NCBI GenBank assembly: GCA_025351325.1
Contig: JANXWE010000097.1
Span: forward strand, 1 to 34,107
From: Fimbriiglobus sp.
Lineage (GTDB): Bacteria; Planctomycetota; Planctomycetia; Gemmatales; Gemmataceae
Length of the DNA: 34,107 nucleotides
Reading direction: 5' to 3'
Shown: piece after piece, positions 3,121-28,369 of the stretch
How the letters are laid out: each line of letters opens with the position of its first letter
Position numbering within the stretch: position 1 is the first letter of the stretch
The notes under the pieces: generated by a model
What the model was told of the DNA's origin: nothing
The model's input: the letters and a program-made list of their open reading frames with translations, nothing else
Databases searched by the model: none
Made by a program: the position numbers and the translations under genes

Positions 3121-3164
3121 GAAATACCTCGTTCCATTATCGTACTCCCTTGCCGGTGAATTCA

Positions 3165-3596
3165 CTATTCCTCGTCTGCGATGGTCACCGATTGCAGCAT
3201 CGCTTTCAGGACCGATTCATAGTCCAGCCGATCCAACTCGCTCACTTGTCCCAGAATCAGCAAGTTCCCCTCACTGGTGCTCACGCACCGCAACCAAGCT
3301 TCAATGCTGGTATCGAGTGTGAGAAAGTCGATGTTGTACCCGACCGCCGGGAGGCCACCGACCGATTCCACAACCGGTTCGGCGTCGAGTTCTTTGTACT
3401 CCGCTTTCATCACACTGAGCGCTTCGTCGGTCACTTGCGTCGGGCTGACGGGGCCGGGTCGCAGCGACGCCGTCAGGAATGCCGTGCCGGGGCTGGCCAC
3501 CGAAACCGTCCAAGCGTCGCTGTCGTCTTCGATTTCCAAAGTCCAACTTGCGGGGTACTGGAATGCAATTCCAGAGCGGGTAAACACTTTCAACAT
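3165..3596 (-). CDS. Hypothetical protein, possibly DcrB/PsbP-like fold
   Basis: This 143-aa protein begins at the ATG at 3596, which has GAGG six bases upstream; a longer frame to 3641 lacks this support. It has no signal peptide or membrane segment. The opening (FQYPASWTLEIEDD, then VSVASPG) resembles the small beta-sheet domains of the DcrB/PsbP/DUF1795 kind, but I do not recognise the family with certainty. The last 37 bases of the gene are repeated exactly at 2423-2459 on the far side of the toxin-antitoxin pair. The gene is probably intact, since it ends in a normal stop (TAG at 3167-3165). Confidence 0.6.
   Translation of the reverse strand: MLKVFTRSGIAFQYPASWTLEIEDDSDAWTVSVASPGTAFLTASLRPGPVSPTQVTDEALSVMKAEYKELDAEPVVESVGGLPAVGYNIDFLTLDTSIEAWLRCVSTSEGNLLILGQVSELDRLDYESVLKAMLQSVTIADEE
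3167..3203. repeat. 37-bp direct repeat, copy B (3' end of the hypothetical gene)
   Basis: Identical to 2423-2459. This copy is the authentic 3' end of the 143-aa gene. The two copies bracket the toxin-antitoxin pair almost exactly: 15 bases from the toxin's stop on one side, and the antitoxin start region on the other. Confidence 0.85.
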
Positions 3597-8522: not shown

Positions 8523-9377
8523 ATGTCCATCCTCGGCGCGATCCCTTCGCTGGATCTGTTTCAGTACAACTTGGTCGACAACGTCTTCTCGATGACCGTC
8601 GCCACGATGGGCGCTGCCGCGCTCTTCTTCTTCCTCTCACGCAACCAAGTGGCCCCGAAATTCCGACCGGCACTCATGGTGTCCGGAATCGTCGTCTCCA
8701 TCGCCTGCTACCACTACTTCATGATTCGAGGAAGCTGGCAAGCCGCTTTCACATACGAAGCGGCGACGGGTGGAACAGGCCAGTACTTGGCGAGCGGCAA
8801 GTCGTTCAACGATTTCTATCGCTACGCCGACTGGATTTTGACAGTGCCACTGTTGATGGTGGAACTGGTCTCCGTGCTCGCCTTGGCCAAGCATATCAGC
8901 CGCCCGCTGTTGATCAAACTGGTTGTCGCGGCAGCACTGATGATCGGCCTGGGTTATCCCGGGGAACTCTCGACCAATTGGAACACTCGCTTGATCTGGG
9001 GTGTGCTCAGCAGCATTCCCTTCTTCTACATCCTCTACGTTTTGTGGATTGAACTGACGAAATCGCTCGATACGCAACCCGCGGAAGCCCGTCCGTTGAT
9101 CTCGCTCGCCCGGATCGTGTTACTGGTCACGTGGGCGTTCTACCCGATTGCGTATGCCATCTACGGTGACTCGCTGCCAGGTGCCACACCCGGAATTATG
9201 ACTGGGGACAAAACCGGCCTCGCGGTTGTCGGCATCCAAGTGGGCTACGCGATTGCTGACATCACGGCGAAGGCCGGATTCGGCGTTCTGATCTACCTGA
9301 TCGCCGTCCGCAAAACGGACGCTCTGACGCATGCCGAACTCGCCGACCAAACCCGCGCCGCTGCGGTCATGGCGTAA
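8523..9377 (+). CDS. Xanthorhodopsin-type light-driven proton pump
   Basis: This 284-aa seven-helix microbial rhodopsin is an inner-membrane, retinal-binding proton pump. The Schiff-base lysine is Lys250 (ADITAKAGFG, with counter-ion partner Asp246). Helix C has the full proton-pump triad: Asp103, Thr107 and Glu114 in YADWILTVPLLMVE. His64 (CYHYF) matches the proteorhodopsin histidine that partners the counter-ion. Leu111 is at the spectral-tuning position, which predicts green absorption. VATM, VAPK, YHYF, LGYPGE and IPFFYILY resemble xanthorhodopsin more than marine proteorhodopsin. Gly160 (LIWG) aligns with the xanthorhodopsin glycine that opens the fenestration for a carotenoid antenna. 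It is the first gene of the operon; blh starts 21 bases after it. Confidence 0.95.
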   Translation: MSILGAIPSLDLFQYNLVDNVFSMTVATMGAAALFFFLSRNQVAPKFRPALMVSGIVVSIACYHYFMIRGSWQAAFTYEAATGGTGQYLASGKSFNDFYRYADWILTVPLLMVELVSVLALAKHISRPLLIKLVVAAALMIGLGYPGELSTNWNTRLIWGVLSSIPFFYILYVLWIELTKSLDTQPAEARPLISLARIVLLVTWAFYPIAYAIYGDSLPGATPGIMTGDKTGLAVVGIQVGYAIADITAKAGFGVLIYLIAVRKTDALTHAELADQTRAAAVMA

Positions 9378-9398
9378 CTCGCTCCTCGGAGTCGTACG

Positions 9399-10373
9399 AT
9401 GGCGACGATCTCGATTCGTTCGATCCCAAACACCATCGACCGACATGCGATCATCGTCACGGTGATCGCATTGTTGGCCGCGGTCACGAATGCTTTCAGG
9501 ACGACGATACCGCTGATGGGGATCATCGTCGGGTTGACTTTGATGGTCGTCGTGGTGGGACTTCCGCATGGTGGCCTCGATCATCGTGCCGGCAGAGCTG
9601 TTTGCGAACCGCTGTTCGGGAGTTGGTGGCCACTCCCGTTTCTGCTTGGGTACTTAGTCGTCGGTGGGATTGTGATCTGCGGTTGGGTCACAGTTCCGTT
9701 CATCACAACGGCACTGTTTTTTGTGTTGTCCGCGTTCCATTTTTCGGACACCGAATCCGGCCCGAAATGGCGTGCGATTCTTTTCGGCGGACTGTCGATT
9801 TGGCTTCCGCTGTTAGCCCGGCCGAACGAAACGGCACTCCTGCTCGGTTGGATCACCCCGACCAACATCGAAGCCTCAGGTGCACTTTTTGCAGTACGCC
9901 CAGCACTGTTTGGAATCGCCGGGATTGCTTTGGCGGTCTGGGCCTTCGAAGTTTCTTTGGCTTTGAAGAGACGCGATCCCGTGGTGCTAATCGACTCGTT
10001 ACGGATTGCCGTGTTTGCCGGAATGTTCATGGCCGTGCCAGTATTGATCGGTTTTGCTGTCTCTTTTTGCGGTTGGCATTCCCTACGTGAGTTAGGACGG
10101 TTGGCGAAGAACGCCGATCCGCTGCGTCCGGAAGTCGGGTTGAAACGAGTGTTGGTCGCCGCCGCTCCGCTCTCCGTCCTGTCCGCGTTGATGGCCGCGT
10201 TCGGGGCTTGGTTCGTGTTCGAGGATCGACCGGTTGGCCCCGTGGTCGTGCAGACGGTCTTCTTGGGGCTGAGCGCCGTCGCCGTGCCCCATATTTTGTT
10301 ACACGCTCTCGCCAGTCGCTTGGGTTTGAATCCGTTCACCGTTGACACACGGGAGGTGGCGAATGCGATTTGA
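9399..10373 (+). CDS. blh: Brp/Blh-family beta-carotene 15,15'-dioxygenase
   Basis: This 324-aa membrane-embedded enzyme cleaves beta-carotene into two retinals, the chromophore for the adjacent opsin. Family histidine motifs are all visible: GLPHGGLDH in the first third, SAFHFSD, FCGWHSLRE and VPHILLHA. Multiple hydrophobic helices agree with the family. GGAG lies about seven bases before the ATG at 9399. It is co-transcribed with the opsin and overlaps crtY by 11 bases, tying retinal production to the last carotenoid step. Its presence argues strongly that the rhodopsin works with self-made retinal. Confidence 0.93.
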   Translation: MATISIRSIPNTIDRHAIIVTVIALLAAVTNAFRTTIPLMGIIVGLTLMVVVVGLPHGGLDHRAGRAVCEPLFGSWWPLPFLLGYLVVGGIVICGWVTVPFITTALFFVLSAFHFSDTESGPKWRAILFGGLSIWLPLLARPNETALLLGWITPTNIEASGALFAVRPALFGIAGIALAVWAFEVSLALKRRDPVVLIDSLRIAVFAGMFMAVPVLIGFAVSFCGWHSLRELGRLAKNADPLRPEVGLKRVLVAAAPLSVLSALMAAFGAWFVFEDRPVGPVVVQTVFLGLSAVAVPHILLHALASRLGLNPFTVDTREVANAI

Positions 10374-11514
10374 CTACCTCATCGCGGGCGGTGGACTCCA
10401 AGCCGGTTTACTGGTGTTGGCCCTGCGGCACCGACAACCGACCGCCCGAATCGCACTGATCGAACGCGCGGAAAAACTCGGTGGCAACCACACCTGGTCG
10501 TTCCACGAAGCGGACGTGCCCACCACCGCTTGGCCCGTGATTCAGTCCTTAATCACCGCGAGTTGGCCGGCGTATCGGGTGCGGTTCCCCGGTCTGCAAC
10601 GTATCGTTCGTAGCCCGTATCACTCGATACTCTCCGATCAATTTGATGCGGTCATCCGAGTCGCTGTCGAACGTCAGGGTAGCCTGTTACGGCAGGGCGC
10701 CGAAGTAGCATCGCTGACTGTCAACCGGGTGACACTGACGGATGGGACTGAATTCAATGGGCGTTGCGTCATTGATGCACGCGGGAGTACTGTTGTCACT
10801 GAGCCATGCGGTTGGCAGACGTTTCTCGGCCTGGAGGTCGAACTCGATTCGCCATGGCCCGACGAGTTACCGACGATCATGGACGCCACCGTGCCCCAGG
10901 ACGACGGTTACCGATTCGTCTATGTGCTACCTTTGAGTCCGACCCGTGTATTGATCGAAGAGACTTACTTCGCTGACTCGCCAACTTTGAATCCCGATCA
11001 CCTGCGAGAACGAGTTGGCGACTATCTCCGAGCCGCCGGCTTCAAAACTTGGCGAGTTCTCCGTGAAGAATCTGGCGTCCTGCCGATGCCGTGGTCCGGC
11101 CGGACACCAACGCCTGCCGCGCCGCTGCGAACCGGTGCGGCCGGCGGTTGGTTTCACCCGGCCACCGGCTACTCGTTCCCCGTCGCATTGAGACTGGCAC
11201 TGGCAGTTGCCGCCGTCGAACCCGAACAGGCCACCCACGCCGCGACGAGCTTGGCCCGCCGCCTCGGCTGGCGGCTCCGCTTCGCCCGATCTTTGAACCG
11301 ACTCTTATTCCGCGCGGTGCGTCCGGCGAATCGTTGGCGCGTCTTCCGCCGACTGTACCGCTCGTTGCCGGACACCACGCTGGCCCGCTTTTATTCTCTG
11401 GAATTCACGGCGGCCGATGCCGCCCGGATTCTCGTGGGTCAGCCGCCGCCGATCGACCCGATCCGCTTGATCACCCGACCGGAGGTATGGTCGTGCCCAC
11501 CGTTGCCGCGTTGA
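10363..11514 (+). CDS. crtY: Lycopene beta-cyclase, CrtY type
   Basis: This 383-aa flavoprotein converts lycopene to beta-carotene by closing both ends. It has the N-terminal dinucleotide-binding fold (FDYLIAGGGLQAGLLVLAL), the family motif FLGLEVEL and the highly conserved DDGYRFVYVLPLSPTR followed by VLIEETYF. This is the classical proteobacterial-style CrtY rather than the CrtL or heterodimeric types. The ATG at 10363 is chosen because GGGAGG precedes it at good spacing; a frame to 10342 would add seven residues. It overlaps blh by 11 bases and crtE by about 20, so translation is coupled through the cluster. Confidence 0.94.
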   Translation: MRFDYLIAGGGLQAGLLVLALRHRQPTARIALIERAEKLGGNHTWSFHEADVPTTAWPVIQSLITASWPAYRVRFPGLQRIVRSPYHSILSDQFDAVIRVAVERQGSLLRQGAEVASLTVNRVTLTDGTEFNGRCVIDARGSTVVTEPCGWQTFLGLEVELDSPWPDELPTIMDATVPQDDGYRFVYVLPLSPTRVLIEETYFADSPTLNPDHLRERVGDYLRAAGFKTWRVLREESGVLPMPWSGRTPTPAAPLRTGAAGGWFHPATGYSFPVALRLALAVAAVEPEQATHAATSLARRLGWRLRFARSLNRLLFRAVRPANRWRVFRRLYRSLPDTTLARFYSLEFTAADAARILVGQPPPIDPIRLITRPEVWSCPPLPR

Positions 11515-12509
11515 CTACCGCCAAAAAAGTGGCCGATCCGTTGACCGAACTGCTCGACCGCGTGGCCGTGCCACCGCCGGGCGTCCCCCGACGAGTCTGG
11601 GTCAAATCGCTCGTCGGGCCGGTGCGCGAGTTCCTCGCCCGGCCGGGCAAACGTTTCCGCAGCCGGCTCGTGACACTCGCGTGGCAATTGTCTGGCCGTG
11701 ACGACGAGCCGCCGCCGTATCTCCCGTTGGTCGTGGAGCTGTTGCATGCCGGCTCGTTGATCGTGGACGACATCGAAGACGGCAGTGTGCAGCGCCGAGG
11801 TCGGGCCGCGCTCCACAAACTCGTCGGAATGCCGACCGCGTTGAACGCCGGGAACTGGCTCTACTTCTGGCCGTTGTCGTTGCTCGAAGACATGGGGTTG
11901 TCACCGACCGTCGAATTGCGATTGCACCGAGCGGCCACCGCTGCCGTGCGCCGCTGCCACGAGGGTCAAGCCCTCGACTTGAGCGCCCACGTCGGCGACT
12001 TGCACCCGGACGAACTCCGCGCCGTCGCCCTCGCCGTCAGCGAACGAAAAACCGGCGGATTGATGGGGCTGGCGGCGGAACTCGGAGCGTCGGCTGCCGG
12101 GGCCGACGCCACAACAATCCGAGCCGCAGCCACATTCGGCGTGAGCCTCGGAGTCGGGTTGCAAATGCAGAATGACTTGTCCGAATTGACCGGGGCGGCC
12201 GGGCCACTGAAGCATCCCGAAGATTTGATTCATGGCCGGGTCACCTGGCCATGGGCTTGGGCGGCCCAACGGTTGCCGGCTTCGCAATTCGACCCGCTTC
12301 AAGTCCGCGGGGCCAAACTCGCCGATGGCCACGGCGATGCCGCCGCGCTGGCCCGCGATCTGCTCGCCGCACTCGGCCCCGATCCGTCCCGGCGCGTGCG
12401 CGAATGGCTCGCGGATGCCGTCGCCGATTTGGCCAACGTCGTGCCTAACGGTACCGCTCTGGATGCCGTGCAGGACGAGATCACCCGCTTGGAACGGAAG
12501 TACTCGTGA
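11493..12509 (+). CDS. crtE: Polyprenyl (geranylgeranyl) diphosphate synthase
   Basis: This trans-isoprenyl diphosphate synthase (about 339 aa) should make the C20 precursor for phytoene. The first aspartate-rich motif is intact (DDIED near residues 92-96), as are GKRFRSRL and the downstream RRGRAALHKL. The second motif, normally DDxxD, reads NDLSE in LQMQNDLSEL near residue 226, an unusual change at a magnesium-binding site. The GTG at 11493 is preferred because GGAGG at 11481-11485 is seven bases upstream; the ATG at 11487 sits almost on top of that site. The gene overlaps the end of crtY and is followed by the PsiE-like gene with a GTGA overlap. Family is certain; chain length is inferred from context. 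Confidence 0.88.
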   Translation: MPTVAALTTAKKVADPLTELLDRVAVPPPGVPRRVWVKSLVGPVREFLARPGKRFRSRLVTLAWQLSGRDDEPPPYLPLVVELLHAGSLIVDDIEDGSVQRRGRAALHKLVGMPTALNAGNWLYFWPLSLLEDMGLSPTVELRLHRAATAAVRRCHEGQALDLSAHVGDLHPDELRAVALAVSERKTGGLMGLAAELGASAAGADATTIRAAATFGVSLGVGLQMQNDLSELTGAAGPLKHPEDLIHGRVTWPWAWAAQRLPASQFDPLQVRGAKLADGHGDAAALARDLLAALGPDPSRRVREWLADAVADLANVVPNGTALDAVQDEITRLERKYS

Positions 12510-16699: not shown

Positions 16700-18547
16700 C
16701 TATTCGGCGATGGCGTCGAGGTAGCCCTTCGCATCGAGATCGGCGAGGCGCTGAAAATACGAGGCCCGGGCTTCACCTTCGCTGTTGAACCGCACCGATT
16801 GCAACCGCATGGTCTGGCCCGCGCGGCCCCAACGCACTTTCAACTTCTTGCGTTCCAGCGAAATCTGCACGACGTTTTCCCCAGCCGCATCACGCTGAGT
16901 GAACGCCCGCGTTTCAAAGGTGACGCCGTCGTCGGTCTTGGCCGTCGCCGCTTCTCGCACTGCCCAAGCCAACCGAAGGGCTATCAGGTGGACGCACGGC
17001 CCCGCCTTCAAACCCTGCTTGCGGAACTGGGCACAGGTGCAACTCGCACGGCGCAAGTTGCCTTCGTCGGCGATCAGCATCTGCGGGCGGTAGTCGCGCT
17101 TCTCTTCGGTCACCGTCACTTGGCCGGTGAGTTCCAACCCTTGGGCCGCGATGCGATTCGCTGAAACGATCTTCACCGCATCGCGGCGGGTCAACAGGTC
17201 GTGGGCGACTTTCTCGCGGACGTTGCGATACTGCAATCGAGTGAGGTCGAGCTTCGTTTCCACCAGCGGCCGGTAGCGGTACTGCTGGGTTGCCAAGTCG
17301 AACATCAGTTGCCCCTGCTGGCACCCGAGTTGCAACGCTTCCAGCAACTGCGACCCCTTCAGCCCCGTCTCTTTGCCGATCTGTTCCTTGGTGGCAACCC
17401 ACACCCCGTCGGCCAAATACTCGGTGATCTTTTCGAGTGCACCACCACTGGTGATCTGTCGTGGCAACAGCAAATCGAATCCGAGTGCACTCGACCAGTT
17501 CGCGGCGGTGAATCCGGTCAGACCCACTGTCAAGGTGATATCACCGGCGCGGAAGATCCAGAAACTCGGCAAGCCACTACCGAGCAAGTAGACATCCACA
17601 CTCTGCACATACGGCAACAATCGCTTCATCAGCAACAAGCGTCGTCGGCCCCAAACGCGGACAACTTTTGCGGCAGTTCCTTTGAACACCGGCCCGGTCG
17701 CTTCGATCACGGTCTCGGACGGTTCGAGCACGAGGCGCGGCTGCTGCGCCGGGATCAGCTCCAACCGCAGCCCGCGCCGCTTGCCCTTGCGGTCCCCGTT
17801 CATCCGCAGGTGCCGCAGGGCGTTGTACAAATCCATCGGGGCCAACTGCACATGTTCGAGCGGTAATGTGGCCGCCGATTGCACCTGCAAGAATCCGCGC
17901 AACCACGAGTCGGGCACGCGAATCTGTTTCTCGAGCACGCCCGGTTCGGTTTCGGTTTTCAGTTGCACGCCAGCCGTGCCGATGTGCAGTTCCGTCTTGC
18001 GGTAGTCGCGCATCTGCTGGACGCTGGCGAAGAGCGCTTCGCTGAAGTCGATGTTGGTGGTACCCGCTCGCACTGCGCCGATTTCGTCGAACGCTTCCCG
18101 CGCGAATGCAAGGCAGGCGTACCCCGATTCATCGCGGCTGAATACTTCCAACAACACCCGATCCGGGTGGACGGTCACCACCGGATCGAGAATGCAAAAG
18201 AGCAGCGGATCGTTCCGCAATAGCCAACCGAAATACGCTTGCTGGGCCTGCCAGATCGACTGCGACGCGGTCTCTTTTTTCAGCCGAAGGTATGCCAGGT
18301 ACGCCGTGCGATCTTTGGGTTGGTAGCGGTAGTCGCTACCAACGATGGCGTACAACGCAGACAGTGCTTCGCGGAAGCGGAGCGGCTCGCGGATGGTGCC
18401 CCGAAACTCGACGGCGGGCCGATCCAGATTGCCGAACAGTTCGAGCTGCGCCGCCGTGCCCGTTGTGGCCACGTGGGAGCTACCGCCATAGCGCAAATGG
18501 GCCGGCGTCGTCGGGGCTTCGTCGGTCGTTTCCACTTCGGTGCTCAT
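16700..18547 (-). CDS. Winged-helix / SWIM zinc finger / WGR-domain protein (retron partner)
   Basis: This 615-aa cytoplasmic protein starts at the ATG at 18547, whose bases overlap the stop of the HEAT gene as ATGA; a longer frame to 18607 is disfavoured. The first 370 or so residues are not recognised. A likely winged helix follows (ATKEQIGKETGLKGSQLLEA), then a SWIM zinc finger near 500-516 (CTC, later CVH, fitting CxC...CxH). Near residue 572 comes a WGR-like domain (KVRWGRAGQTMRLQSV). SWIM and WGR domains bind nucleic acids or their ends, WGR being best known from PARP proteins. Placed between the scaffold gene and the RT, it is a candidate sensor or effector of the retron. I recall a retron class with winged-helix/SWIM partners but could not check it. 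Confidence 0.85.
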   Translation of the reverse strand: MSTEVETTDEAPTTPAHLRYGGSSHVATTGTAAQLELFGNLDRPAVEFRGTIREPLRFREALSALYAIVGSDYRYQPKDRTAYLAYLRLKKETASQSIWQAQQAYFGWLLRNDPLLFCILDPVVTVHPDRVLLEVFSRDESGYACLAFAREAFDEIGAVRAGTTNIDFSEALFASVQQMRDYRKTELHIGTAGVQLKTETEPGVLEKQIRVPDSWLRGFLQVQSAATLPLEHVQLAPMDLYNALRHLRMNGDRKGKRRGLRLELIPAQQPRLVLEPSETVIEATGPVFKGTAAKVVRVWGRRRLLLMKRLLPYVQSVDVYLLGSGLPSFWIFRAGDITLTVGLTGFTAANWSSALGFDLLLPRQITSGGALEKITEYLADGVWVATKEQIGKETGLKGSQLLEALQLGCQQGQLMFDLATQQYRYRPLVETKLDLTRLQYRNVREKVAHDLLTRRDAVKIVSANRIAAQGLELTGQVTVTEEKRDYRPQMLIADEGNLRRASCTCAQFRKQGLKAGPCVHLIALRLAWAVREAATAKTDDGVTFETRAFTQRDAAGENVVQISLERKKLKVRWGRAGQTMRLQSVRFNSEGEARASYFQRLADLDAKGYLDAIAE

Positions 18548-21500
18548 GCCGTTCGCCTCGCCAGGGTCAACTTCCGCGCCCGTTTCGACCGGCTCAAGGC
18601 CTTCCACGCCGCCTTGCGAATCTCTTCATCCACTTTGTCGTCGGCACCGAGTTTCACCAGCACCGCTTCCGCGGCGACGTCGGCCAAGAAGCCAAGTCCT
18701 TCGACCGCACCCAATCGCACCGGCTCGGCCGCTTTCTTGTCCGTGGCCACGGCCGCGAGTGTCGGCACATCCTTCGCGGCGAGGAGTACCACCGCTTGTT
18801 GGCTGGCTTGCCCCACAGCCACATTCACGGCGACGTTCACCGCACCGGCGTTGCGCATCCGCGTGAAGGTCGGGCGGTCGGCGAAGAACTGCGGCAGCAT
18901 CTTGCCAGCCTGAGCGGAGTCCGCGTGGGCGAGTGCGGTGGCCGCGAGAATCCGCAGCTCCGCGTCGGTGCCAGCCGCCAGCGTTTTGAAGGCGTCCAGT
19001 ATCGCAGCGGTCGGCTTGGCAGAACCAACAAGTGACCGCAGTGCTGCGAGCCGAATCGGTTTCGCGCGGGCGTCATCCAGTTGGCTCGTGGCAATCCCGG
19101 CGACAGTCTCGCTTCCCACACCCACCCGTTGGCAGGCCCAGAACAGTTCCGGCAAGCACGTCGTCGAGCCATTCGCATCTGCTTGTTTCGCTTCCAATTC
19201 CTGCCACTTGGCCCACCAACTCTTCACGGCTTTTTGCAGGGCAGCACCCGCGCTCGCCGGCAATTTCTCGGCGTGTCCCAACATACGGGCGGCCAATCGC
19301 ACCGTGGAATCATCGGCGCGATCCAACGCCGCCAGTGCTGGGGCCACGGGGACATCCGGCCGACTGGTCAGACTCGTTTCGAGCCGCCCCTTCACGTCGT
19401 CGCTGCACTTCGGGAAGAGTTCGAGCAACCGGAGAACATCGCCCTTCTCGCAAACCACGGCCAGCGCATCGACCTCGGATTTGCCAAACTTGTCGGCACC
19501 ATGCTGGGGATTTTGAATGGCCGCGTAGTGTGGTTCAAAGTTGTCCGGGCCGAAGAGTTTGACGGCGGAATCGAAGGCGGCCCGGATGACATCGTTGTCG
19601 CGCTCCGTCCGTAGCACTTTCAACAATAGGTCGCGGATGGCGGGAGTATCGTGGAACGCGAGTTCCCGGCAGGCAATCATCTGCGTGCGCCAATTGCTGC
19701 CGACAGCCGCGGCTTGGATCAAGCTCCAACCGCTTGGTGAATCGAACCAGCGCAACCCGACCAGCGCACTCTGCGCGATTCCACTCCGAGGCGACTTCGC
19801 CAACCGTTCGAGCAACTTGCCGATGGCCTCGGCACGCGGGCTGCGCCGCAGGTGCCCAATGGCCTCCGCAGCCGACTCTTGCAGGGCGTGGTTGTCTTCC
19901 CCGGCGAGTTTCACCAACACATCCACGGCACGCGGGTCAGCGAGTTCACCCAGTGCCAGCACCGCCCGCTGCCGCATCGCCACGTCGTCCAAATATTCGA
20001 TGCTGCTCAGCAGGACTTGCAACCCTTCCGGCCGCTGCACTCGGGCCAACCCCTCGGCCGCGAGGAACTGCGTGGTCGGATCTTTATGCTTGAGAGCTTT
20101 CGCCAGCGGTTCAACCGACCCCTGCCGTTCCTTCGCTCGCCACGCAATTGATTCGATGGCCGTGTGGCGGATCTCTTCGTCCGGGTTCGCGCCCAGCGTG
20201 CTCAGCACGGGATCGACTTCGGACCCGCGCGCCGACTCCGCATCGCGGATGGTGTGCAGTTCATTCCGCAAGATCCCGGCAGCCGAAAGTGCTTCGAGCA
20301 ACTTGGCCAGCACGGCTGAGTGGCGCGGGTGCTGCTTCTTCTCGCGTGCCAATCGGGCCGGTTCGTCCTCGTCGCTCTCCTCGTCCTGATCGAACCCCGA
20401 TACGGTGTACGTGGCGTTGAAGAGCGGCGCCTGGAATTCCTTCTTGTCGACCGCCAGCTTCAGCATCCGCTCCGCGGATGCCGGATTGCGGAAACTGCCG
20501 GCGGCCTCGATCAACTCGGTGGCGACGGCAGTACCGGTGGGATCGATCACCACGCGGTCGAGCAGGGCATCGACGGCACGCGGATCGGCCAACGCGACGA
20601 AGCCGGCGATCAGTTTCCCCTGTTGTTCGGGCGTCGTAGCTTCCTTCAGCAATGCTTTCAATGTTTCGAACGCGGCCGTGTCTTTCTTCTGGGCCAGGGC
20701 CAACGCCGCTTCTTCGCGGACTTGCCGATACCGTGAAGCCGTCGCGGTTCGCAGAGCCGCTCGACCCGCCGGGTCGTTCTCGTGGAGCCAGTTGACGGCT
20801 TGGGTTCGCAGGGCGGGGAAGACCGCGTCGAGGGCGACGGTGGCCACGGACACCGGCCCACGCGACTTCACCAGCAGCTTCGCCGCTTCGAGGGCCAAAT
20901 CGTCGGTGCGACTGAGCAGCACCCGTTCGAGCACCGCGTCGCCGTCTTTGCCTTTGGTGCCTTCCGTCAGCAGTTGCAACCCCTTCACCCCGAGATCGGT
21001 GAACCCGGCTTCGAGGGCATCTCGGCTGAGCGTGGCCCGGTCGATGCCGAGGTTCAGCAAGTGGTCGAACGCTTGCAAACGCACCGCTTGATTCGGGTCG
21101 CCGAGGGCTTGCGTCAGCACCGGTTGAGTCGCCCGCACCAACGCCGGTTCCAACTTGGCCAAGGCGGAGATGCGGGCCAACGCCGTCTGGCGAATCCGGA
21201 TGACCGCCGGCGTCGCGGCGGCTCCGCCCTGCTCGCGTACCAAGCCGATGTAGGCCCCGAAGGCGAGTTCGCGGGGTTCCGCCTGATTCAACTTCGGTGG
21301 CACCGGCTTGGCCTTGGCCAACGCCGTCGTGAATGCGGTCGAATATCGCGATTTCAGCAGTCCGAATTCCGCTGTCCAGCGACCCTGCTCTTTTTCTTCG
21401 AAGGCGAGCAGCGGGAAGTACGCGAGTGCCCGAAGCTGCGACGGAGCCAACGCCAGAACTGCCGCAAATGCTTCAATTTCTTCAGCCGGGATCTTCCAGG

Positions 21501-24500
21501 CGGGGGCGTCACCCCGGTCGTTCAGCGTGGTCGTCACGAATGTCAAGAAGTTGGCACGGTCGTGGAATGCTTCCAACCCTTGAGCAGCCGCGAGTCGCAA
21601 CCGTGCCGATTGTGCCGAGAGCGTTTGCAAGCAAAGATCGGGCGTGCCGTCGGTGCCAGCAAGCTCAAGTAACAGATGAACGAAGAGTGCCCGCGTCCGC
21701 ACCGCTTCATCGGGGTTGTCCAAAAAGCCCGCGAGCAACCCCGAGGAACCCTGTGCCAGTGCCGCCGTGAATGGGCCGTCGATGCCAAGTACCGTCACCG
21801 CTTCGTCGGAGCGCACCAACGGGCCGACGGAGGCATCACCGAGCCAAGCGAGGGTCAGGGCCGCTGGGAACTTCACATGCGAATCGGCGTGCGTCATCGC
21901 CTCTCGCAGGGCAGCCACGTTCTCGGCACGGGCTGTGGTGAGCAACGCTTGAGCCGCGCCCCGGCGGATGGTTTCGTGTGAAGATTCGAGCAAATTCAGC
22001 AGGTCACCGAACACCGAGGGATCGCCGAGTGATTTCAAACCAACCAAGGCGAGGCCGACGTTTTCCGTCCACGTTGCTTTCAAGTGCGGCTCTTGCGGCT
22101 CCGGGGTAAAGGCCAGTTCCCGCAGCGGAACCAGTGCGGCCGCATCACCCTGTTTGGCCAGTGCCACGACGGCGCGGGAGCGCACGTCGGCCAATTCCGA
22201 CTTCAGCCCCGCATGCAATGCATCGCGGGCATCGTCGTCGATCAAGTACGAAATGGCTGCGCAGCGAACTTCTGGAACACCGTCGGCCATCGCCGATTGG
22301 AGCAGCGCCTGCGCCGGTTTGCTGTGCTTTTTGAACAGGGCCTCGAGTGCCAGCAACCGCGCGTCTGGGTACCGTGACTTCAGCATCGCCGCGAGCGGTG
22401 GCAGCTCCTTGTTCTTGCGGATCGCCTGCTCGAATGCCTCTTTGCGAAGCTCGGCGGCGGGGTCATCGAAGAACTCGTACTGCAACGGCACCGCCCACGG
22501 CTGATCGATCTGGGCGGTCACTTCGATCAACACTTCACGGCGAACGTCGGCATGAATCGACTGGCGAATGAACCGCAGCGTCGCTTCGCCGCCACCACCT
22601 ATCCCCCGGTTCAACGCGGCTTTGAACGCCTCTTGACGCACCTTGGGGGCACTGTCGTTGAGAGTACGAACCAACAAGCCCCACGCGGGTGCGGCCTCAT
22701 TTTGCGGTGGTGTGGCCTTGGCGAATTCGGCGAGCGTTTGCAACCCCCGCAAGCGCACATCGGCTTCGGTGGCCCCCAACCCCGCTTCGGCGGCCAACAG
22801 CGGCTCCGTCTTGTGGAGTGCCACCATCGCCGTGTACGCCGCATCGCGCACCGACGCTTCGCGGTCGTCGAGCAACGATCGCAATCGATTCGTGGCTCGA
22901 CCATCACCCAGTGCCGCGAGTGCCCGGCAGACATCGACCCGGGCCGGCACGACGTCTTCCCGGCTGAGCTGCAACAGCAAGCTGAAGGCCCGCGAATCCT
23001 TCAAGATCGCCAGCCCCTTGGCCCCACGCAAGCAGGTGTCGAGTGCCCGGCTCGCGGTCGCTTGCAACAGGGCATCGTAGTCTGCTGCATCGAGTTTTGC
23101 CGCCGTCGCTTTAGGTGCGGCCCTCTCCGATTTTTCGAGTTCGTTCAACTGCCGGTGCAAGTCGTCGTCTTGCGCACGCAGCACCGCTGCCAACGTCGGC
23201 CGCGATTCAATGGACAGCAAGAATGCCACCCGGCGGACGGTGCCATCATCGTCCTCGAGTGCCCGGCGGATGGCCGAGGTCACACTGGCGTCCGCGAGTA
23301 ACCCGCTGCTGAAAAAGCGGGTGAGGGCGGCTGCACGGATGTCGCCGAACTTGGCTTGGAGTGCCAGCAACCCGGCCTGCGGACTCGTGGCTCCAGTCAC
23401 CGTTTCGAGCGATTGCAAGGCCTGAGCACGCACGTCCCATTTCGGAGCGCCGAGCGCCGCGACCAACCGGGCCATCGCTTGGTCGTCAGTTGTAGCCAGC
23501 GGTTCGAGCGCCTTCGCCGCCAGCACGCCAATCTCGGGTTTGCCGGTGGCGAGGGCCGCGTCGATGGGGCGCAGATCGGACTGCCCGAGTTGTTTCTGCA
23601 AACCGCCGAACACCGCGACCCGCACTTTGTCGTCGTTGTGGTTCAGATGCGGTTCGAGCAGCGCCGCCACACGCGGATTCTTGACATCACCGAGGAGCTT
23701 GGCCGCTTTCACCCGCAAGCCAGAGTCGCTGTCGGCAGCAATCCGGCCGGCCAGCAAAGTCAAGGACGCCGTGTCATTCCACCCGGCGAGCTTCTGCTGC
23801 GCGGTATCGCGGGCTTTGGTATCCCAAGTGTTCTCAAATTCGCGTGCGGCCCATTCTTGCGCCCCGTGCAGCGTGACCTTGCCGTCGAGTTCGTCTTCGT
23901 CGAATTTGCCGCTCTCGGCATCCAAAGCCAAGATGCGGATCGTGTTATCGGTGCAGAGTGCGACGATCACCGGATCGTCGAACACGACTGCCGCCACCAG
24001 TGCGATGACCGGCCCGAGTTGATCCTTCAACGTCGATGGTTTTATCGCCCCGCCGCGCGGCCAGTTTTTAATCGTCGCATCCAGGGAACCGGACAAGAGT
24101 CGATCGCCTTGCGGAACCAGTAGCAACGCCGTCGGCAGGTTTTCGTGGTTGTTGCCACGCCCCTTATCTTCAGCGTCGAGATCGCCCCGGGCGTGCGTGC
24201 TGAGCAGCTTGTTATCGGCACCGGTCGAAAAGAACCGCAATTCCTCCGGTTCAAACAAGATCGCCGTGACCCGGCCATCGTGGAGTTTCGCACTTTCGGA
24301 CACTTCGAACTCGGCCCGGTCTTGACCATCGAACACGACTACCGAACCGTTGTCGCAGCCGACGGCCAGCCACTGCCCCGATTTGTCGGTGGCAATGCAG
24401 CGACCGACGCCGGGCAGTTCGAACGTTTGCAAGATGCCGCCGTCGGCACGGGACACCAAGACCAATTGCGAACCGCAGACGACCGCCAGCCGATCCCCCG

Positions 24501-24798
24501 CCACTGGCACCAAGGCAGCCAGATCGTCGGCGAGCGCTTCGCCTAGCGGCTGGAGTTTCTTGCCGAGCGAGTACAACCGGCGGTCGGTACCTGCGACGTA
24601 AATGTTCTGAGCATCGGATGCCAGTGCCAGGCCCCCGCATGGCAGGGGCACCTCGGCGATGGTGTCGGTTTCGATCTGGAAGCGGTACAGCGCCGTCGGC
24701 AGGCCTTCGGGGTGAACCGTCACGAAGACAATTTCGGCGCCGAGGCCGAGCGCGGCTTTGAGGTCACCGCGGTAGGGGAAGTAGAAATCCTGCGCCAT
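18544..24798 (-). CDS. Giant beta-propeller / HEAT-repeat protein (retron partner)
   Basis: This 2084-aa cytoplasmic protein has no signal peptide. Residues 1 to about 290 form a WD40-like propeller with blade-like repeats (YSLGKKLQPLG, WLAVGCDNGSVVVFDGQD, FFSTGADNKLLSTH, LLSGSLDATIKNW). The rest, roughly 330-2080, is a long run of HEAT-like helical repeats (for example DPRAVDALLDRVV, DDKVRVAVFGGLQKQL, SPRSGIAQSALVGLRWF). Such a superhelix is a scaffold or cargo-binding solenoid; no catalytic motif is visible. It begins nine bases after the BRCT gene stop and ends in an ATGA overlap with the SWIM gene, so stoichiometric co-production is likely. It is probably the structural core of the retron complex, but this is inference. 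Confidence 0.85.
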   Translation of the reverse strand: MAQDFYFPYRGDLKAALGLGAEIVFVTVHPEGLPTALYRFQIETDTIAEVPLPCGGLALASDAQNIYVAGTDRRLYSLGKKLQPLGEALADDLAALVPVAGDRLAVVCGSQLVLVSRADGGILQTFELPGVGRCIATDKSGQWLAVGCDNGSVVVFDGQDRAEFEVSESAKLHDGRVTAILFEPEELRFFSTGADNKLLSTHARGDLDAEDKGRGNNHENLPTALLLVPQGDRLLSGSLDATIKNWPRGGAIKPSTLKDQLGPVIALVAAVVFDDPVIVALCTDNTIRILALDAESGKFDEDELDGKVTLHGAQEWAAREFENTWDTKARDTAQQKLAGWNDTASLTLLAGRIAADSDSGLRVKAAKLLGDVKNPRVAALLEPHLNHNDDKVRVAVFGGLQKQLGQSDLRPIDAALATGKPEIGVLAAKALEPLATTDDQAMARLVAALGAPKWDVRAQALQSLETVTGATSPQAGLLALQAKFGDIRAAALTRFFSSGLLADASVTSAIRRALEDDDGTVRRVAFLLSIESRPTLAAVLRAQDDDLHRQLNELEKSERAAPKATAAKLDAADYDALLQATASRALDTCLRGAKGLAILKDSRAFSLLLQLSREDVVPARVDVCRALAALGDGRATNRLRSLLDDREASVRDAAYTAMVALHKTEPLLAAEAGLGATEADVRLRGLQTLAEFAKATPPQNEAAPAWGLLVRTLNDSAPKVRQEAFKAALNRGIGGGGEATLRFIRQSIHADVRREVLIEVTAQIDQPWAVPLQYEFFDDPAAELRKEAFEQAIRKNKELPPLAAMLKSRYPDARLLALEALFKKHSKPAQALLQSAMADGVPEVRCAAISYLIDDDARDALHAGLKSELADVRSRAVVALAKQGDAAALVPLRELAFTPEPQEPHLKATWTENVGLALVGLKSLGDPSVFGDLLNLLESSHETIRRGAAQALLTTARAENVAALREAMTHADSHVKFPAALTLAWLGDASVGPLVRSDEAVTVLGIDGPFTAALAQGSSGLLAGFLDNPDEAVRTRALFVHLLLELAGTDGTPDLCLQTLSAQSARLRLAAAQGLEAFHDRANFLTFVTTTLNDRGDAPAWKIPAEEIEAFAAVLALAPSQLRALAYFPLLAFEEKEQGRWTAEFGLLKSRYSTAFTTALAKAKPVPPKLNQAEPRELAFGAYIGLVREQGGAAATPAVIRIRQTALARISALAKLEPALVRATQPVLTQALGDPNQAVRLQAFDHLLNLGIDRATLSRDALEAGFTDLGVKGLQLLTEGTKGKDGDAVLERVLLSRTDDLALEAAKLLVKSRGPVSVATVALDAVFPALRTQAVNWLHENDPAGRAALRTATASRYRQVREEAALALAQKKDTAAFETLKALLKEATTPEQQGKLIAGFVALADPRAVDALLDRVVIDPTGTAVATELIEAAGSFRNPASAERMLKLAVDKKEFQAPLFNATYTVSGFDQDEESDEDEPARLAREKKQHPRHSAVLAKLLEALSAAGILRNELHTIRDAESARGSEVDPVLSTLGANPDEEIRHTAIESIAWRAKERQGSVEPLAKALKHKDPTTQFLAAEGLARVQRPEGLQVLLSSIEYLDDVAMRQRAVLALGELADPRAVDVLVKLAGEDNHALQESAAEAIGHLRRSPRAEAIGKLLERLAKSPRSGIAQSALVGLRWFDSPSGWSLIQAAAVGSNWRTQMIACRELAFHDTPAIRDLLLKVLRTERDNDVIRAAFDSAVKLFGPDNFEPHYAAIQNPQHGADKFGKSEVDALAVVCEKGDVLRLLELFPKCSDDVKGRLETSLTSRPDVPVAPALAALDRADDSTVRLAARMLGHAEKLPASAGAALQKAVKSWWAKWQELEAKQADANGSTTCLPELFWACQRVGVGSETVAGIATSQLDDARAKPIRLAALRSLVGSAKPTAAILDAFKTLAAGTDAELRILAATALAHADSAQAGKMLPQFFADRPTFTRMRNAGAVNVAVNVAVGQASQQAVVLLAAKDVPTLAAVATDKKAAEPVRLGAVEGLGFLADVAAEAVLVKLGADDKVDEEIRKAAWKALSRSKRARKLTLARRTA

Positions 24799-24807: not shown

Positions 24808-27800
24808 CTACCGGGAGAGCGAAAACTGCGGGTAGCGGTGGCGAATCCGCGTGATGGCCACAAGGCAGGCGGCCCGTTCGCTCTTACCACGCGAATGGAC
24901 GAATTCATCGAGTAGCGGGAGGATCCCACCGGCGAAGGCTTCTTCTTCGATGGCCAAATCGCGCATCACTTCGAGGGCGTCCAGCTTCGCCCGGCGGGCC
25001 GGGATCGGCTTCAACGACACTGGCTTGTCACTGGTTGTCGCCTCGGCTTCGTCAGCACTGGTCGCTGGCCCCTGCGTTTTTGGCGGTGGCCCCGGTGGCA
25101 ACTCGAACAACACACGACGGAGGAATGTGGCCAGCGTTGCCCCTTCAGCAGGCCAGGTAGTCGGCCTTGTGGGAACGCCAGTACCGAGTTCCATGCCGCG
25201 TTTCTCGGCATCCTTCTTGGCCTTGGCCCCGACGGTCGGCGCCGGTGGCACGGGTGGTTTCCAATCGGCCGTGACCCCGCGATCGCGATAGACGCTCCAC
25301 AGGGCGCGAATGACGAATGCTCTCACTTTGCGATCTGGACTTTGCGACAGCAGGAACAGCGATTCCGGGACACGCAACTTCGGCAACCGGCGGATCAATT
25401 CCATCCCGAGTGCCCGCGTCTCTTCCACCGCCGATTCGCACAGGCGGTACACCGTGGCCGCTTCCAAGTTCGCCGGGTCGATGCGGTACGGCTGACTCTC
25501 TTTTCCTGGCTCCGCGAGTAACGCCTTGGCGGCGAAGCGACGGACATCGACGAACGAATTCTCGGTGAGTGCCACCAGCTCTTCGGCAGCCGGATTCCAG
25601 CGGGCGAACTCATAAGGCGCATAGGCCAGTGCAAAGTCACGGAGCGGTTTACGGGTCTCGTTGAACATCGGGGCGAAGCGTGCCCACGTCAGGAAGTTCG
25701 CCGGGATTTCGGCTCCGGGATCGACCGGCCGCGAAGTATCCACCAAGGCCATTGCGGGGTGGTGCTTGCGGAAATAATCGCGGGCGAACACCCCGGCTGG
25801 AGCATCGGCCGGGCCAGGGCTGACAACCATATTCCAGAGCGCCTCGCAACCCAGGCGGGTGCTGTCCGCATCGGCGGCGGCCACGGGCGCCCCGCTGAGC
25901 ATCTGCAAAAACATCGTCTCGGAGATGATGCGAATGTTCGCCCCGGCGGCGTTCAACTCTTCGCCCTTCACTTGCTTCGTTCCCTTTTTCCCTTGGCCGT
26001 ACAGCGGGGAACCTTCGTCGCCGATCACGAGGTAATGCAGGTTCTTGGTCACACTGCCAGCTACGGTGCCCTTCGCGGCCTTCACCTTGGCCTCGGCTTC
26101 GTCGCGCGTCATTGTCGCCAGTTTGCCGGTGAACAGGAACGAACTCTTCTGCAAATCGGCTTCGACCCGACCAGCGGGAACCGCTGCGGTACTGCTCGCC
26201 ACTGTCGGTGCGAAATCGGCTGGCACGAACGAACGGATCAAGCGACTCTTGGCGAAGTCGGAGTACCGTGGTTCGGCGCGGGCCACCAGTTTCATCAGCC
26301 AGTCGAAGCCGAGTTCGGCGTTGGTGAAGGCCCGCACGTCGGCGAACCGACCGAGGATCGCATCGGCCCGATTCTCGTCGAAACACAGTTGTTCGGCCCA
26401 GTCGCCATTGGTCGCAGTGAACTCACGCCGCCACGGGGAGGCGTCCCAGTCCGGTTCGTACGACAGCATCTTCCAGAAATCGACGCCAAACGCCTGCGGG
26501 GTAATCTTGCTCTCTGATATCCAGCCATCCACGGCCGCAACTGTGAAGGGGAACAGGGCCAGCCATTGCAGGTCGGCTTGCGGGATCGCGGGCAGGTCCA
26601 GCAGTTTTAACTCGCCCATTGCCCACTGAGCTAGCGCCGAGTGGGCGTCGTTCTTCAGGTCGATCTTCTTCAACAGATCGACGAAGTACACGGGGCCGAG
26701 TCCCTTGGCCGGGTGCAACTTGAGCAGGTTCGTTTGGGCGAAGGCCCCGGCGGCACGGCTGCCGTGTAGCAAGCGTTCGGCAAACCACGCGGGCGTCAGT
26801 TCCTTGGCCCCGAACGACTTCAATAGCGACTTCGCCGCAAAGTCATTCATATAGGTCGTTTCGAGTAACCGGCCCCAACCGTCGAGGCCGATTTCCTTGC
26901 GCGGGTCGCGTTCGCCGACGAGGTCGAGCACCAATTTCTGCACGGCGGCATCGCCGTTGTTGGCCAGTTTCACAAGTCGATCGAGGGTCAAATCGCGGGC
27001 GTGAATCCGCGCGTATTCGGCGGCGTACTTACGAGCCGCACCCGACGGTGAATCGAAGAGCCGCAGCACCGCGTCGTGCAGGCCGAGTTTGCGGAAGGCC
27101 GCCTGTTCGAACTTCGGCACGTTCTGCAGAATCCAGACCATGAACTCGTGGACGGCGGCACTCGGCACGCCGGCGAGCCGCTGCACCCAGGCCGGTTCCA
27201 CATCCCGCAGCACCGGCTTGAAGTCGGTCTTCAACCCGGCGATGGCGAACTCGCGCACCGTTTCGGCACGGGCCAGTTCCAGCAGTGCAAAGAGTGGTCG
27301 CGGGCTGCGTTTCCAAAGATCTCCGTAGGCCCGGTGCTTCAATTCGCTCGGTTTGGGCTGACTCCGCGAATCGAACCGGAAGCCCGCACGACCGTATTTC
27401 TTCGTCTCATGGAAGGCAATGTGGTTCCAAATCCACGTCCGTGGCCACATTGCGTCTTCCGTGTATCGACTCAGGAGATCGACTGCGACATCCGGATAAG
27501 TTGCAGGCAGTTGCACCGCCACCCGGCGCAGGTAGCGCCACGCACGCCGAGCCAAATACGCGAGCGTGGCGGGACTAATTTCCCCGCACGAACGACTCGA
27601 ACAGGCGGAGTCGAAACGGGCCGCGAGAGCACCATACACTTCGGTGTCGTTCTTCACCTCGGCCTCTTTGAAGATGCGTTTGAGTGCCCGCCAGGGGCCG
27701 TACACCAACGGGACTTCGGCGATCACTTGCAAGAGGGTGTCACGAGCCAAGGCGTCGTTGGCGTTCCACAACTCCAAGATCACGGTGTCGATCTTACGCC

Positions 27801-28068
27801 GTTCCGGCAGTGGCACTTCCGAATCAGCGGCTTCGACGACTTTCAGCCGTTCCACGCGGGCTGCTGCTTGTTCCGGTTTCGTTTTGCGACGAAGCTCGTT
27901 GCTTCGCTGGAAGCGAATCCACTCATCAAAAGTCGGGGTACCCTCCCGTGGTGGCGGTTCGAGAACGGGGTCATCTTGAACAGAACAATCGACGAGAAGC
28001 TGGGTGAAACGGGGATCGCGGTTGGCCCAGGCCTTTTGCAGGTCCGCGATGGTCAGGGTGGTTGCCAA
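24808..28068 (-). CDS. BRCT-domain helical-repeat protein (first retron-operon protein)
   Basis: This 1086-aa protein starts at a TTG codon (28068-28066), supported by GGAG seven bases upstream. A single BRCT domain lies near residues 638-722 (SSFLFTGKLATMTRDEAE, then KNLHYLVIGDEGS), most like those of bacterial DNA ligase and RFC1. BRCT domains bind DNA ends or phosphoproteins. The rest is mostly alpha-helical and HEAT-like (VREFAIAGLKTDF, VRRFAAKALLAEPG, KVRAFVIRALWSVYRDRG). A Pro-rich linker lies near residue 955. The start codon lies 14 bases after the end of the predicted retron RNA, so this gene is read straight through from it. The nine-base gap to the HEAT gene places it in the same operon. 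Enzymatic activity is not evident. Confidence 0.85.
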   Translation of the reverse strand: MATTLTIADLQKAWANRDPRFTQLLVDCSVQDDPVLEPPPREGTPTFDEWIRFQRSNELRRKTKPEQAAARVERLKVVEAADSEVPLPERRKIDTVILELWNANDALARDTLLQVIAEVPLVYGPWRALKRIFKEAEVKNDTEVYGALAARFDSACSSRSCGEISPATLAYLARRAWRYLRRVAVQLPATYPDVAVDLLSRYTEDAMWPRTWIWNHIAFHETKKYGRAGFRFDSRSQPKPSELKHRAYGDLWKRSPRPLFALLELARAETVREFAIAGLKTDFKPVLRDVEPAWVQRLAGVPSAAVHEFMVWILQNVPKFEQAAFRKLGLHDAVLRLFDSPSGAARKYAAEYARIHARDLTLDRLVKLANNGDAAVQKLVLDLVGERDPRKEIGLDGWGRLLETTYMNDFAAKSLLKSFGAKELTPAWFAERLLHGSRAAGAFAQTNLLKLHPAKGLGPVYFVDLLKKIDLKNDAHSALAQWAMGELKLLDLPAIPQADLQWLALFPFTVAAVDGWISESKITPQAFGVDFWKMLSYEPDWDASPWRREFTATNGDWAEQLCFDENRADAILGRFADVRAFTNAELGFDWLMKLVARAEPRYSDFAKSRLIRSFVPADFAPTVASSTAAVPAGRVEADLQKSSFLFTGKLATMTRDEAEAKVKAAKGTVAGSVTKNLHYLVIGDEGSPLYGQGKKGTKQVKGEELNAAGANIRIISETMFLQMLSGAPVAAADADSTRLGCEALWNMVVSPGPADAPAGVFARDYFRKHHPAMALVDTSRPVDPGAEIPANFLTWARFAPMFNETRKPLRDFALAYAPYEFARWNPAAEELVALTENSFVDVRRFAAKALLAEPGKESQPYRIDPANLEAATVYRLCESAVEETRALGMELIRRLPKLRVPESLFLLSQSPDRKVRAFVIRALWSVYRDRGVTADWKPPVPPAPTVGAKAKKDAEKRGMELGTGVPTRPTTWPAEGATLATFLRRVLFELPPGPPPKTQGPATSADEAEATTSDKPVSLKPIPARRAKLDALEVMRDLAIEEEAFAGGILPLLDEFVHSRGKSERAACLVAITRIRHRYPQFSLSR

Positions 28069-28083
28069 AGGGGAGCTCCGACA

Positions 28084-28108
28084 CGAATTCTCGACTCGAA
28101 CGGACGGG
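28084..28108. repeat. Inverted repeat arm a2 of the retron RNA
   Basis: This 25-base arm pairs with 28338-28362. The two share CGAAT, CTCG, ACTCGAACGGA and GGG in order, with one mismatch and one extra base on each side. Together the arms enclose the msr hairpins and the msd, as a1/a2 do in retrons. Confidence 0.85.
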
Positions 28109-28132
28109 TGTCAACGACTCGACCTGGGGCAT

Positions 28133-28260
28133 CGAAGGCTCACGGTTCCGCCGGCCGGGGGTGACCCTGTACGACATAAGAACCACGATTCGCGGGGTTG
28201 CTCCAGTCTTATGTCGTACAGGGTCACCCCCGGCCGATAGCGGAACTGGAACAGCCTTCG
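28133..28260. repeat. Long msd hairpin with 30-bp perfect arms
   Basis: The inner arms 28152-28181 and 28207-28236 are perfect inverted repeats of 30 bases. A 3-base bulge separates them from a further 7-bp helix (28145-28151 with 28240-28246), and a small internal loop leads to an outer 8-bp helix (28133-28140 with 28253-28260). That gives 45 base pairs in total. The 25-base apex contains a small 5-bp hairpin (CCGCG/CGTGG around AAT on the minus strand). Reverse transcription would give a single-stranded DNA that refolds into an equally long double-stranded stem. Confidence 0.9.
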
Positions 28261-28337
28261 TTGAGGAGCATGGGAAGCCATGGGCTCGGACGACGCAACA
28301 TCGTCCCGGTGACCGAAGTCACCACGCTTAACGGGAA

Positions 28338-28362
28338 CCCTTCCGTTCGAGTGCGAGATTCG
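28338..28362. repeat. Inverted repeat arm a1 of the retron RNA
   Basis: Partner of 28084-28108. On the minus strand this arm is the 5' end of the predicted RNA, and the candidate promoter just upstream would start transcription at about 28363. Confidence 0.85.
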
Positions 28363-28369
28363 TCATAGG

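What the first reader, a model, noticed from the sequence alone, without database searches (positions are those of the whole stretch)
28133..28260. msd hairpin with perfect 30-bp arms and a structured apex
A perfect 30-bp stem plus two outer helices would, after reverse transcription, give a single DNA strand that refolds into a long double-stranded rod. Such a product could mimic a DNA end or a regulator's binding site, a plausible bait for the BRCT/WGR partners. Perfect identity over 30 bp also implies either strong selection or recent origin.
Basis: partly seen in the sequence, partly recalled or inferred. Interest (0 to 1): 0.6.

Follow-up and report, generated by a model that had tools for sequence, protein, structure and literature searches.

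The report
Retron with swappable DNA-hairpin cassettes
The 30-base-pair hairpin is the DNA-making part of a type XIII retron (a bacterial reverse-transcriptase system of the anti-phage kind); in related planctomycetes one such system appears to be served by up to 36 scattered RNA genes whose hairpins differ almost completely in sequence, stay nearly perfectly paired at a fixed length, and are swapped as whole units.

Summary
The hairpin is real: perfect 30-bp arms (28152-28181/28207-28236) inside a complete msr-msd RNA on the minus strand (28363-28083), upstream of a type XIII retron operon (HEAT/BRCT, HEAT/WD40, SWIM-WGR-like, RT with YADD, NAxxH and VTG). In relatives the arms diverge to chance level yet still pair, at fixed length (26 of 31 RT-locus stems have at least 29 perfect pairs). 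Unexpectedly, a model of the flanking RNA finds 36, 31, 26 and 14 dispersed copies in four Gemmata-group genomes, each with one window-type RT and one HEAT/BRCT gene. Of 93 copies parsed, 71 have at least 28 of 29 pairs; together they hold 56 distinct stems. At 16 same-locus pairs between two genomes, stems match at 27-29 of 29 bases (10) or 8-16 (6), nothing between: hairpins are replaced as units. Stems are enriched in internal dyads (30 of 80 strong; 7.2 expected). Best reading: exchangeable double-stranded DNA baits presented by a retron complex. The anatomy, repertoire and replacement are shown; msDNA production, phage sensing and the source of new hairpins are inferred. The window's own genome shows only one copy.

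The parts
28337..28363 (-). a1, 5' end of the retron ncRNA, pairs with a2
   Evidence: 27-nt inverted repeat, 78% complementary; closes the RNA fold
28326..28328 (-). predicted priming AGC motif (branching G at 28327)
   Evidence: AGC of the TTTAGC/TTAAGC motif after a1, conserved in relatives; role recalled from known retrons, not shown
28308..28323 (-). msr hairpin 1
   Evidence: sequence; fold; conserved in alignment
28288..28306 (-). msr hairpin 2, GGACGATGTTGCGTCGTCC, most conserved part
28265..28287 (-). msr hairpin 3
   Evidence: sequence and fold
28133..28260 (-). msd hairpin with two outer helices (the finding)
   Evidence: outer helix covaries between relatives
28207..28236 (-). 5' arm of the perfect 30-bp stem (exchangeable cassette)
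28182..28206 (-). apical loop, conserved between relatives
28152..28181 (-). 3' arm of the perfect 30-bp stem
28083..28109 (-). a2, 3' end of the ncRNA; reverse transcription should start just before it
   Evidence: start point inferred from known retrons
24808..28068 (-). HEAT/ARM protein with BRCT domain (HEAT-ARM_XIII), 1086 aa
   Evidence: PADLOC E 0, 1086 bits; BRCT E 6.4e-6
18544..24798 (-). HEAT-repeat and WD40 protein (HEAT-ARM_XIII), 2084 aa
16700..18607 (-). SWIM_XIII protein, weak SWIM and C-terminal WGR signals, 635 aa
15370..16665 (-). retron reverse transcriptase RT_XIII, 431 aa, with YADD, NAAVH and VTG
   Evidence: PADLOC 512 bits, RVT_1, translation; motif names recalled, VTG also in PMC6868368

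Best explanation
The finding is the msd of a type XIII retron ncRNA, and its apical hairpin is an exchangeable cassette: an invariant RNA frame and apical loop carry a roughly 29-bp stem whose sequence is almost free but whose length and pairing are kept (shown by comparison). In the Gemmata group the same frame recurs in many dispersed stand-alone genes per genome that co-occur with the single operon, and hairpins at a given locus are replaced as whole units (shown). I infer that the one RT reverse-transcribes all of them in trans, giving a panel of msDNAs, each a rigid DNA rod bearing its own, often dyad-symmetric, site. These would be held by RT and the HEAT/BRCT/SWIM-WGR proteins as baits; a phage enzyme or DNA-binding protein that modifies, cuts or binds one rod would release or activate the effector proteins (inferred from how other retrons are triggered). 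New hairpins probably arrive by recombination through the conserved flanks, possibly with msDNA itself as donor (inferred).
For: Operon and RT. Perfect arms. Upstream of the HEAT gene in 36 relatives plus the window, 29 of 37 regions gave 31 stems; 26 of 31 have at least 29 consecutive perfect pairs and the other five 22, 22, 26, 27 and 28. Mean pairwise inner-stem identity 0.31 against 0.29 for shuffles. Frame spacing is 115-117 nt in 27 of 31 frame hits. Dispersed copies: 36, 31, 26, 14 in four genomes and 27, 18, 14, 14, 11 in five more. Of 198 genomes, 37 have the ncRNA and 38 the HEAT gene; the printed lists share 36. Ten genomes each show one window-type RT. Pairing in 93 copies: 57 with 29/29, 71 with 28 or more; 56 distinct stems. 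Replacement is bimodal at 16 G472/G481 same-locus pairs: 10 at 27-29, 6 at 8-16 of 29. Hairpins shared by two loci of one genome while frames differ (84/85 against 82/99 and 31/51). Compensatory changes between orthologues L213/L237, L205/L242. Terminator-like stem after a2 in 61 of 93 copies, 2 of 93 in control. Dyad enrichment: 30 of 80 against 7.2, sd 2.5. Retron triggers acting on msDNA: PMC13158370.
Against: The window's own genome shows a single copy, so the repertoire is shown in relatives only. No RNA, msDNA or phenotype data. 13 of 93 copies no longer pair and some hairpins are collapsed. In family f6 the stems drift gradually (L063/L064 24 of 29, L060/L061 20 of 29) and copy number is 1-2. 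a1/a2 pairing in dispersed copies is only modestly above control (runs of 8 or more in 42 of 93 against 25 of 150 mismatched pairs). No phage source or target of any stem was found: 6 stems by exact 20-22-mers in viral contigs. Dyad enrichment could have a non-functional cause.
Confidence: 0.6

Rival explanations
1. The stem is a structural ruler only. Length and pairing matter, sequence does not; hairpins are reshuffled by gene conversion among paralogous copies, and dispersed copies are by-products of ncRNA spread.
For: Fixed spacing with chance-level sequence identity; hairpins shared between loci in one genome and related across loci and species (L039 with L207 25 of 29, L043 with L262 26 of 29); decayed copies.
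Against: Stems are enriched in dyads against shuffles and against genomic 29-mers; same-locus conserved stems are nearly unchanged although flanks differ by 3-28%, though pairing constraint alone could explain that; dispersed copies keep frame, loop, pairing and terminators.
Confidence: 0.3
2. Spacer-like memory: new stems are pieces of phage or mobile-element DNA captured into the hairpin.
For: Whole-unit replacement at fixed loci; distinct stems per copy; some copies lie beside terminase genes or in predicted proviruses.
Against: No exact 20-22-mer hit for 6 stems in viral contigs; no other match within 3 mismatches in the own genome for the window stem or, for one tRNA-arm-like stem, in six genomes. 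Planctomycete phages are poorly sampled, so this is weak.
Confidence: 0.08
3. Some dispersed copies are phage-borne decoys or partners that use or jam the host retron, and prophages spread them.
For: L206 has a terminase large-subunit gene about 200 nt from the ncRNA, and similar ORFs lie beside L214 and L215; two predicted provirus contigs carry the ncRNA (E 7e-20 and 1e-17) beside terminase genes.
Against: Only a few of 33 parsed G472 copies show this; for most no phage gene was seen, but most neighbours were not annotated. One provirus hairpin (L306) is degenerate.
Confidence: 0.15
4. The hairpins are ordinary dispersed intergenic repeats (terminators, REP-like or MITE-like elements) unrelated to a retron.
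For: Dispersed and structured.
Against: Full msr-msd anatomy; co-occurrence with the type XIII operon in 36 of the 37 ncRNA-positive genomes of 198; two same-genus genomes without the HEAT gene, G410 and G448, have none.
Confidence: 0.03

Closest known systems
Type XIII retrons (PADLOC RT_XIII, HEAT-ARM_XIII, SWIM_XIII, WGR_XIII)
   Same: RT and three partner proteins match; msr-msd in front of the operon
   Different: Dispersed ncRNA copies, fixed-length exchangeable stems and tandem ncRNAs are not something I know to be described; the classification paper (Mestre 2020) is recalled and was not held
Retrons Eco1/Ec86, Ec83, Eco8
   Same: msDNA stem-loop held in an RT-effector complex; phage methyltransferase (Ec86), degradation (Ec83) or SSB (Eco8) acting on msDNA releases the effector (PMC13158370, main text read, part 1 of 2)
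   Different: Described with one ncRNA beside the RT; other effectors
msDNA-like repeats of Nannocystis exedens (Lampson and Rice 1997; Lampson 2002)
   Same: msDNA-like sequences dispersed in a chromosome, proposed retrotransposition
   Different: The 2002 title says a partial copy; here full-length units with variable paired stems. Only titles seen, in the reference list of PMC6868368
Diversity-generating retroelements
   Same: A reverse transcriptase linked to a variable cassette in a constant frame; the idea that msDNA may home like DGR cDNA is in PMC6868368 (passages)
   Different: Variable part is a paired hairpin replaced as a unit, not a coding repeat

Membership tests
Type XIII retron | RT of the XIII clade with retron motifs | tested here: met
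   RT_XIII 512 bits, next best 288; YADD, NAAVH, VTG in the translation
Type XIII retron | HEAT-ARM / SWIM / WGR partner genes in the operon | tested here: met
   HEAT-ARM_XIII twice, SWIM_XIII; WGR weak in Pfam
Type XIII retron | msr-msd ncRNA with a1/a2, priming AGC and msd hairpin | tested here: met
Retron (general) | reverse-transcribed branched msDNA is made | not testable with these tools
   needs msDNA extraction
Retron (general) | one ncRNA per RT, adjacent to the operon | tested here: inconclusive
   met in the window genome (1 copy); not met in the Gemmata group (14-36 copies in four genomes)
Anti-phage defence | protects against phage | not testable with these tools
   no assay
CRISPR-like memory | variable units match invader DNA | tested here: inconclusive
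   0 exact hits for 6 stems in viral contigs; sampling poor
Diversity-generating retroelement | adenine-directed mutation copied from a template repeat | not tested
   changes seen are whole-unit replacements; base-specific bias was not measured

The most novel reading that the evidence does not exclude
A retron-based repertoire: one RT operon reads a genome-wide panel of ncRNA genes, each giving a different double-stranded DNA bait, and the panel is renewed by swapping whole hairpins between loci and between cells, perhaps by the msDNA recombining into other copies of its own conserved frame.
Probability: 0.35. Interest if true: 0.95.

Novelty: new variant of a known kind. Interest (0 to 1): 0.86.

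Why it matters
Retrons are understood as one RT, one RNA template and one effector set, and how msDNA sequence sets what is recognised is called unclear (PMC13158370). A natural series of more than 50 hairpins in the same frame, with orthologues that keep or replace them, makes that question directly testable. It would also be a natural case of many templates per retron RT, useful for multiplexed DNA production.

Tried and rejected
Recent-origin or hypermutation reading of the arms: rejected for dispersed copies because same-locus stems are either nearly identical or unrelated; my first reading from RT-locus stems alone was hypermutation, and the dispersed copies changed it. Coding reading of the arms: considered by eye and dropped, because the reading frame across the loop is not kept in family f6 (loop 28 against 27 nt). 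Self-match: the window stem has no other site in its genome with up to 3 mismatches. tRNA-arm resemblance of one stem (L226): no match outside its own two arms in six genomes. Rfam: no family at gathering score. Search for an empty site at locus L208: the counterpart in G481 proved to be a decayed copy (L249), not an empty site. Common neighbour gene: an unnamed protein family lies near 14 of 33 parsed G472 copies and terminase-like ORFs near 3; one member of that family has no Pfam or PHROG match. Blast of one provirus-side copy (L206) against phages and plasmids: none. Of the upstream regions, L067 was dropped from stem comparison because its stem is longer (32 bp); L036, L050, L051, L033, L052, L058 and L068 gave no full stem (collapsed, missing or cut by contig ends). 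Literature: search listings; no held paper joins retron and Gemmata, and the one paper holding both retron and 'type XIII' is a phage-resistance ecology paper (listing only). This library lacks most subscription papers and bioRxiv, so novelty is not proven.

Full report
Observation. On the minus strand upstream of a gene starting at 28068 lies a complete retron-like RNA: a1 28363-28337, an AGC priming motif, three msr hairpins, an msd hairpin 28260-28133 and a2 28109-28083. The arms 28152-28181 and 28207-28236 are 30 nt and perfectly complementary. RNA and DNA folds beat every shuffle. Rfam has no match at gathering score.

Surroundings. The RNA precedes four genes on the same strand: a 1086-aa HEAT/ARM protein with BRCT, a 2084-aa HEAT and WD40 protein, a 635-aa SWIM_XIII protein with weak SWIM and WGR signals, and a 431-aa RT. 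PADLOC's best models are all type XIII retron. The RT has YADD, NAAVH and VTG.

Relatives at the RT locus. The HEAT/BRCT gene was found in 38 of 198 related genomes, and the region upstream was read in 36 relatives plus the window. A near-invariant frame flanks an arm, a conserved apical loop and the complementary arm. 31 stems from 29 of 37 regions were compared; 26 of 31 have at least 29 consecutive perfect pairs. Stem sequences are near chance identity (0.31 against 0.29 shuffled). For the close pair L046/L049 the HEAT protein is 99% identical, four-fold sites 84% and the spacer to the start codon 92%, but the stem matches at only 11 of 29; L043/L048 and L046/L053 give 9 of 29. Against this, L063/L064 keep 24 of 29 and L060/L061 20 of 29, so in family f6 stems drift slowly. 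A collection scan gave named hosts, among them Limnoglobus roseus, Zavarzinella formosa, Gemmata sp. IIL30, Singulisphaera acidiphila, Paludisphaera soli and Tautonia sociabilis, and more distant HEAT relatives in Myxococcota and Verrucomicrobia. Most Myxococcota loci show no such frame near the HEAT gene; one proteobacterial locus, L117, does. Other type XIII-like RT loci carry long perfect stems too: L076 and L077 have 27-bp arms in the same frame with different sequences.

Dispersed copies. A covariance model of the flanking RNA without the variable stem (R1) found the ncRNA in 37 of 198 relatives and in 4 of 392 genomes drawn from the phylum, the window's own included. With more candidates scored, four Gemmata-group genomes gave 36, 31, 26 and 14 copies; five more gave 27, 18, 14, 14 and 11, the window's congeners G394 and G392 six and three, G393 none, and the window genome one. 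The congeners' copies also have different stems: eight of nine have 29-30 perfect pairs and the ninth, the G392 operon copy, 22. By the printed lists, 36 genomes have both ncRNA and HEAT gene, one only the ncRNA (G432), two only the HEAT gene (G412, G543). In ten genomes searched there is one window-type RT each, with a second XIII-like RT in eight (the split into two kinds is mine, by where the profile match starts and its score).

Anatomy of the copies. 93 copies from four genomes were parsed: 57 pair at 29/29, 71 at 28 or more, 77 at 25 or more, 13 below 20. An earlier 55-copy set gave a mismatched-arm control of 10.1 of 29 on average. There are 56 distinct stems, and 28 of the 29 stem columns show several pair types; column 1 is always C-G. 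A terminator-like stem follows a2 in 61 of 93 copies against 2 of 93 one kb downstream, and a consensus scan finds a 13-bp terminator at L207 but no sigma-70-type promoter. Promoters were judged by eye only. a1/a2 pairing is modestly above control.

Replacement. For G472 and G481, 17 same-locus pairs were defined by blastn matches on both sides of the copy; 16 have both arms parsed. Stem matches are 8, 10, 10, 11, 12, 16 and then 27 to 29 for ten pairs. One of the ten (L220/L248) is a decayed hairpin in both genomes and one of the six (L203/L236) is degenerate in G481. At replaced loci with a parsed loop the loop differs too (0.42-0.85 identity), while at conserved loci it is 0.93-1.0. Two loci in G472 share one hairpin (84/85) while their frames differ, and G481 has a similar case. 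Orthologous stems L213/L237 and L205/L242 differ by compensated changes. So hairpins behave as units that are kept or swapped. With the more distant G457 and G436 the same split is seen, apart from two values of 23 and 24 that belong to the decayed copy L270.

Stem content. 80 distinct stems are richer in internal dyads than dinucleotide shuffles (z 4.5 to 7.5, 0 of 300) and than GC-matched genomic 29-mers (30 of 80 strong against 7.2, sd 2.5). An earlier set of 31 stems gave only a weak signal. No stem source was found: six single stems had no exact 20-22-mer hit in viral contigs.

Phage links. L206 in G472 lies beside a terminase large-subunit gene and L214 and L215 beside similar ORFs. Two of 21 viral contig loci fetched by frame patterns carry a true copy (E 7e-20 and 1e-17), both near terminase genes; one has the same stem as G481 copy L243, so it may be the same strain's provirus.

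How it may work. In other retrons, msDNA holds effectors and is the thing that phage factors touch: a methyltransferase for Ec86, degradation for Ec83, SSB for Eco8 (PMC13158370). Rods with dyad sites fit a bait for dimeric DNA enzymes or binding proteins. That step, trans use of the copies by the RT, and msDNA as donor for hairpin exchange are inference.

Against known families. It is a type XIII retron by proteins and ncRNA. It departs in the number of templates and in exchangeable stems. Dispersed msDNA-like repeats have a precedent in Nannocystis (titles only). A 2019 review already raised msDNA homing and adaptive roles as hypotheses (PMC6868368, passages).

Noticed in passing
window 8523-12509: Rhodopsin gene next to beta-carotene dioxygenase, lycopene cyclase and polyprenyl synthetase genes: a likely light-pump and retinal pathway cluster.
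   Followed up: no
L103, L129 (=L036, L050), L217: Hairpin replaced by a short perfect palindrome (16 or 18 nt) inside an intact frame: a deletion between palindromic sites in the two arms, or an assembly artefact (L217 is in a one-contig genome).
   Followed up: partly
L234 copy at 2644 (G481): Chimeric hairpin: loop and 3' arm equal the L211 hairpin, 5' arm unrelated (14 of 29 pairs at best); may be a recombination product or misassembly.
   Followed up: partly
L076, L077, L074, L078: A second type XIII-like lineage with the ncRNA directly upstream of the RT and 21-27-bp perfect variable arms; whether it also has dispersed copies was not tested.
   Followed up: partly
L208 about 3160-3420; L200:4170-4790: A family of roughly 240-bp repeats with dozens of matches per genome near an ncRNA copy, and an unnamed protein family near 14 of 33 parsed G472 copies; whether the two are the same was not tested.
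   Followed up: no
L086, L108, L057, L087: Two tandem ncRNAs before the operon with different stems.
   Followed up: partly
L044 and L049 upstream regions: Other long inverted repeats of 37 and 44 bp upstream of the ncRNA, not of the retron frame.
   Followed up: no
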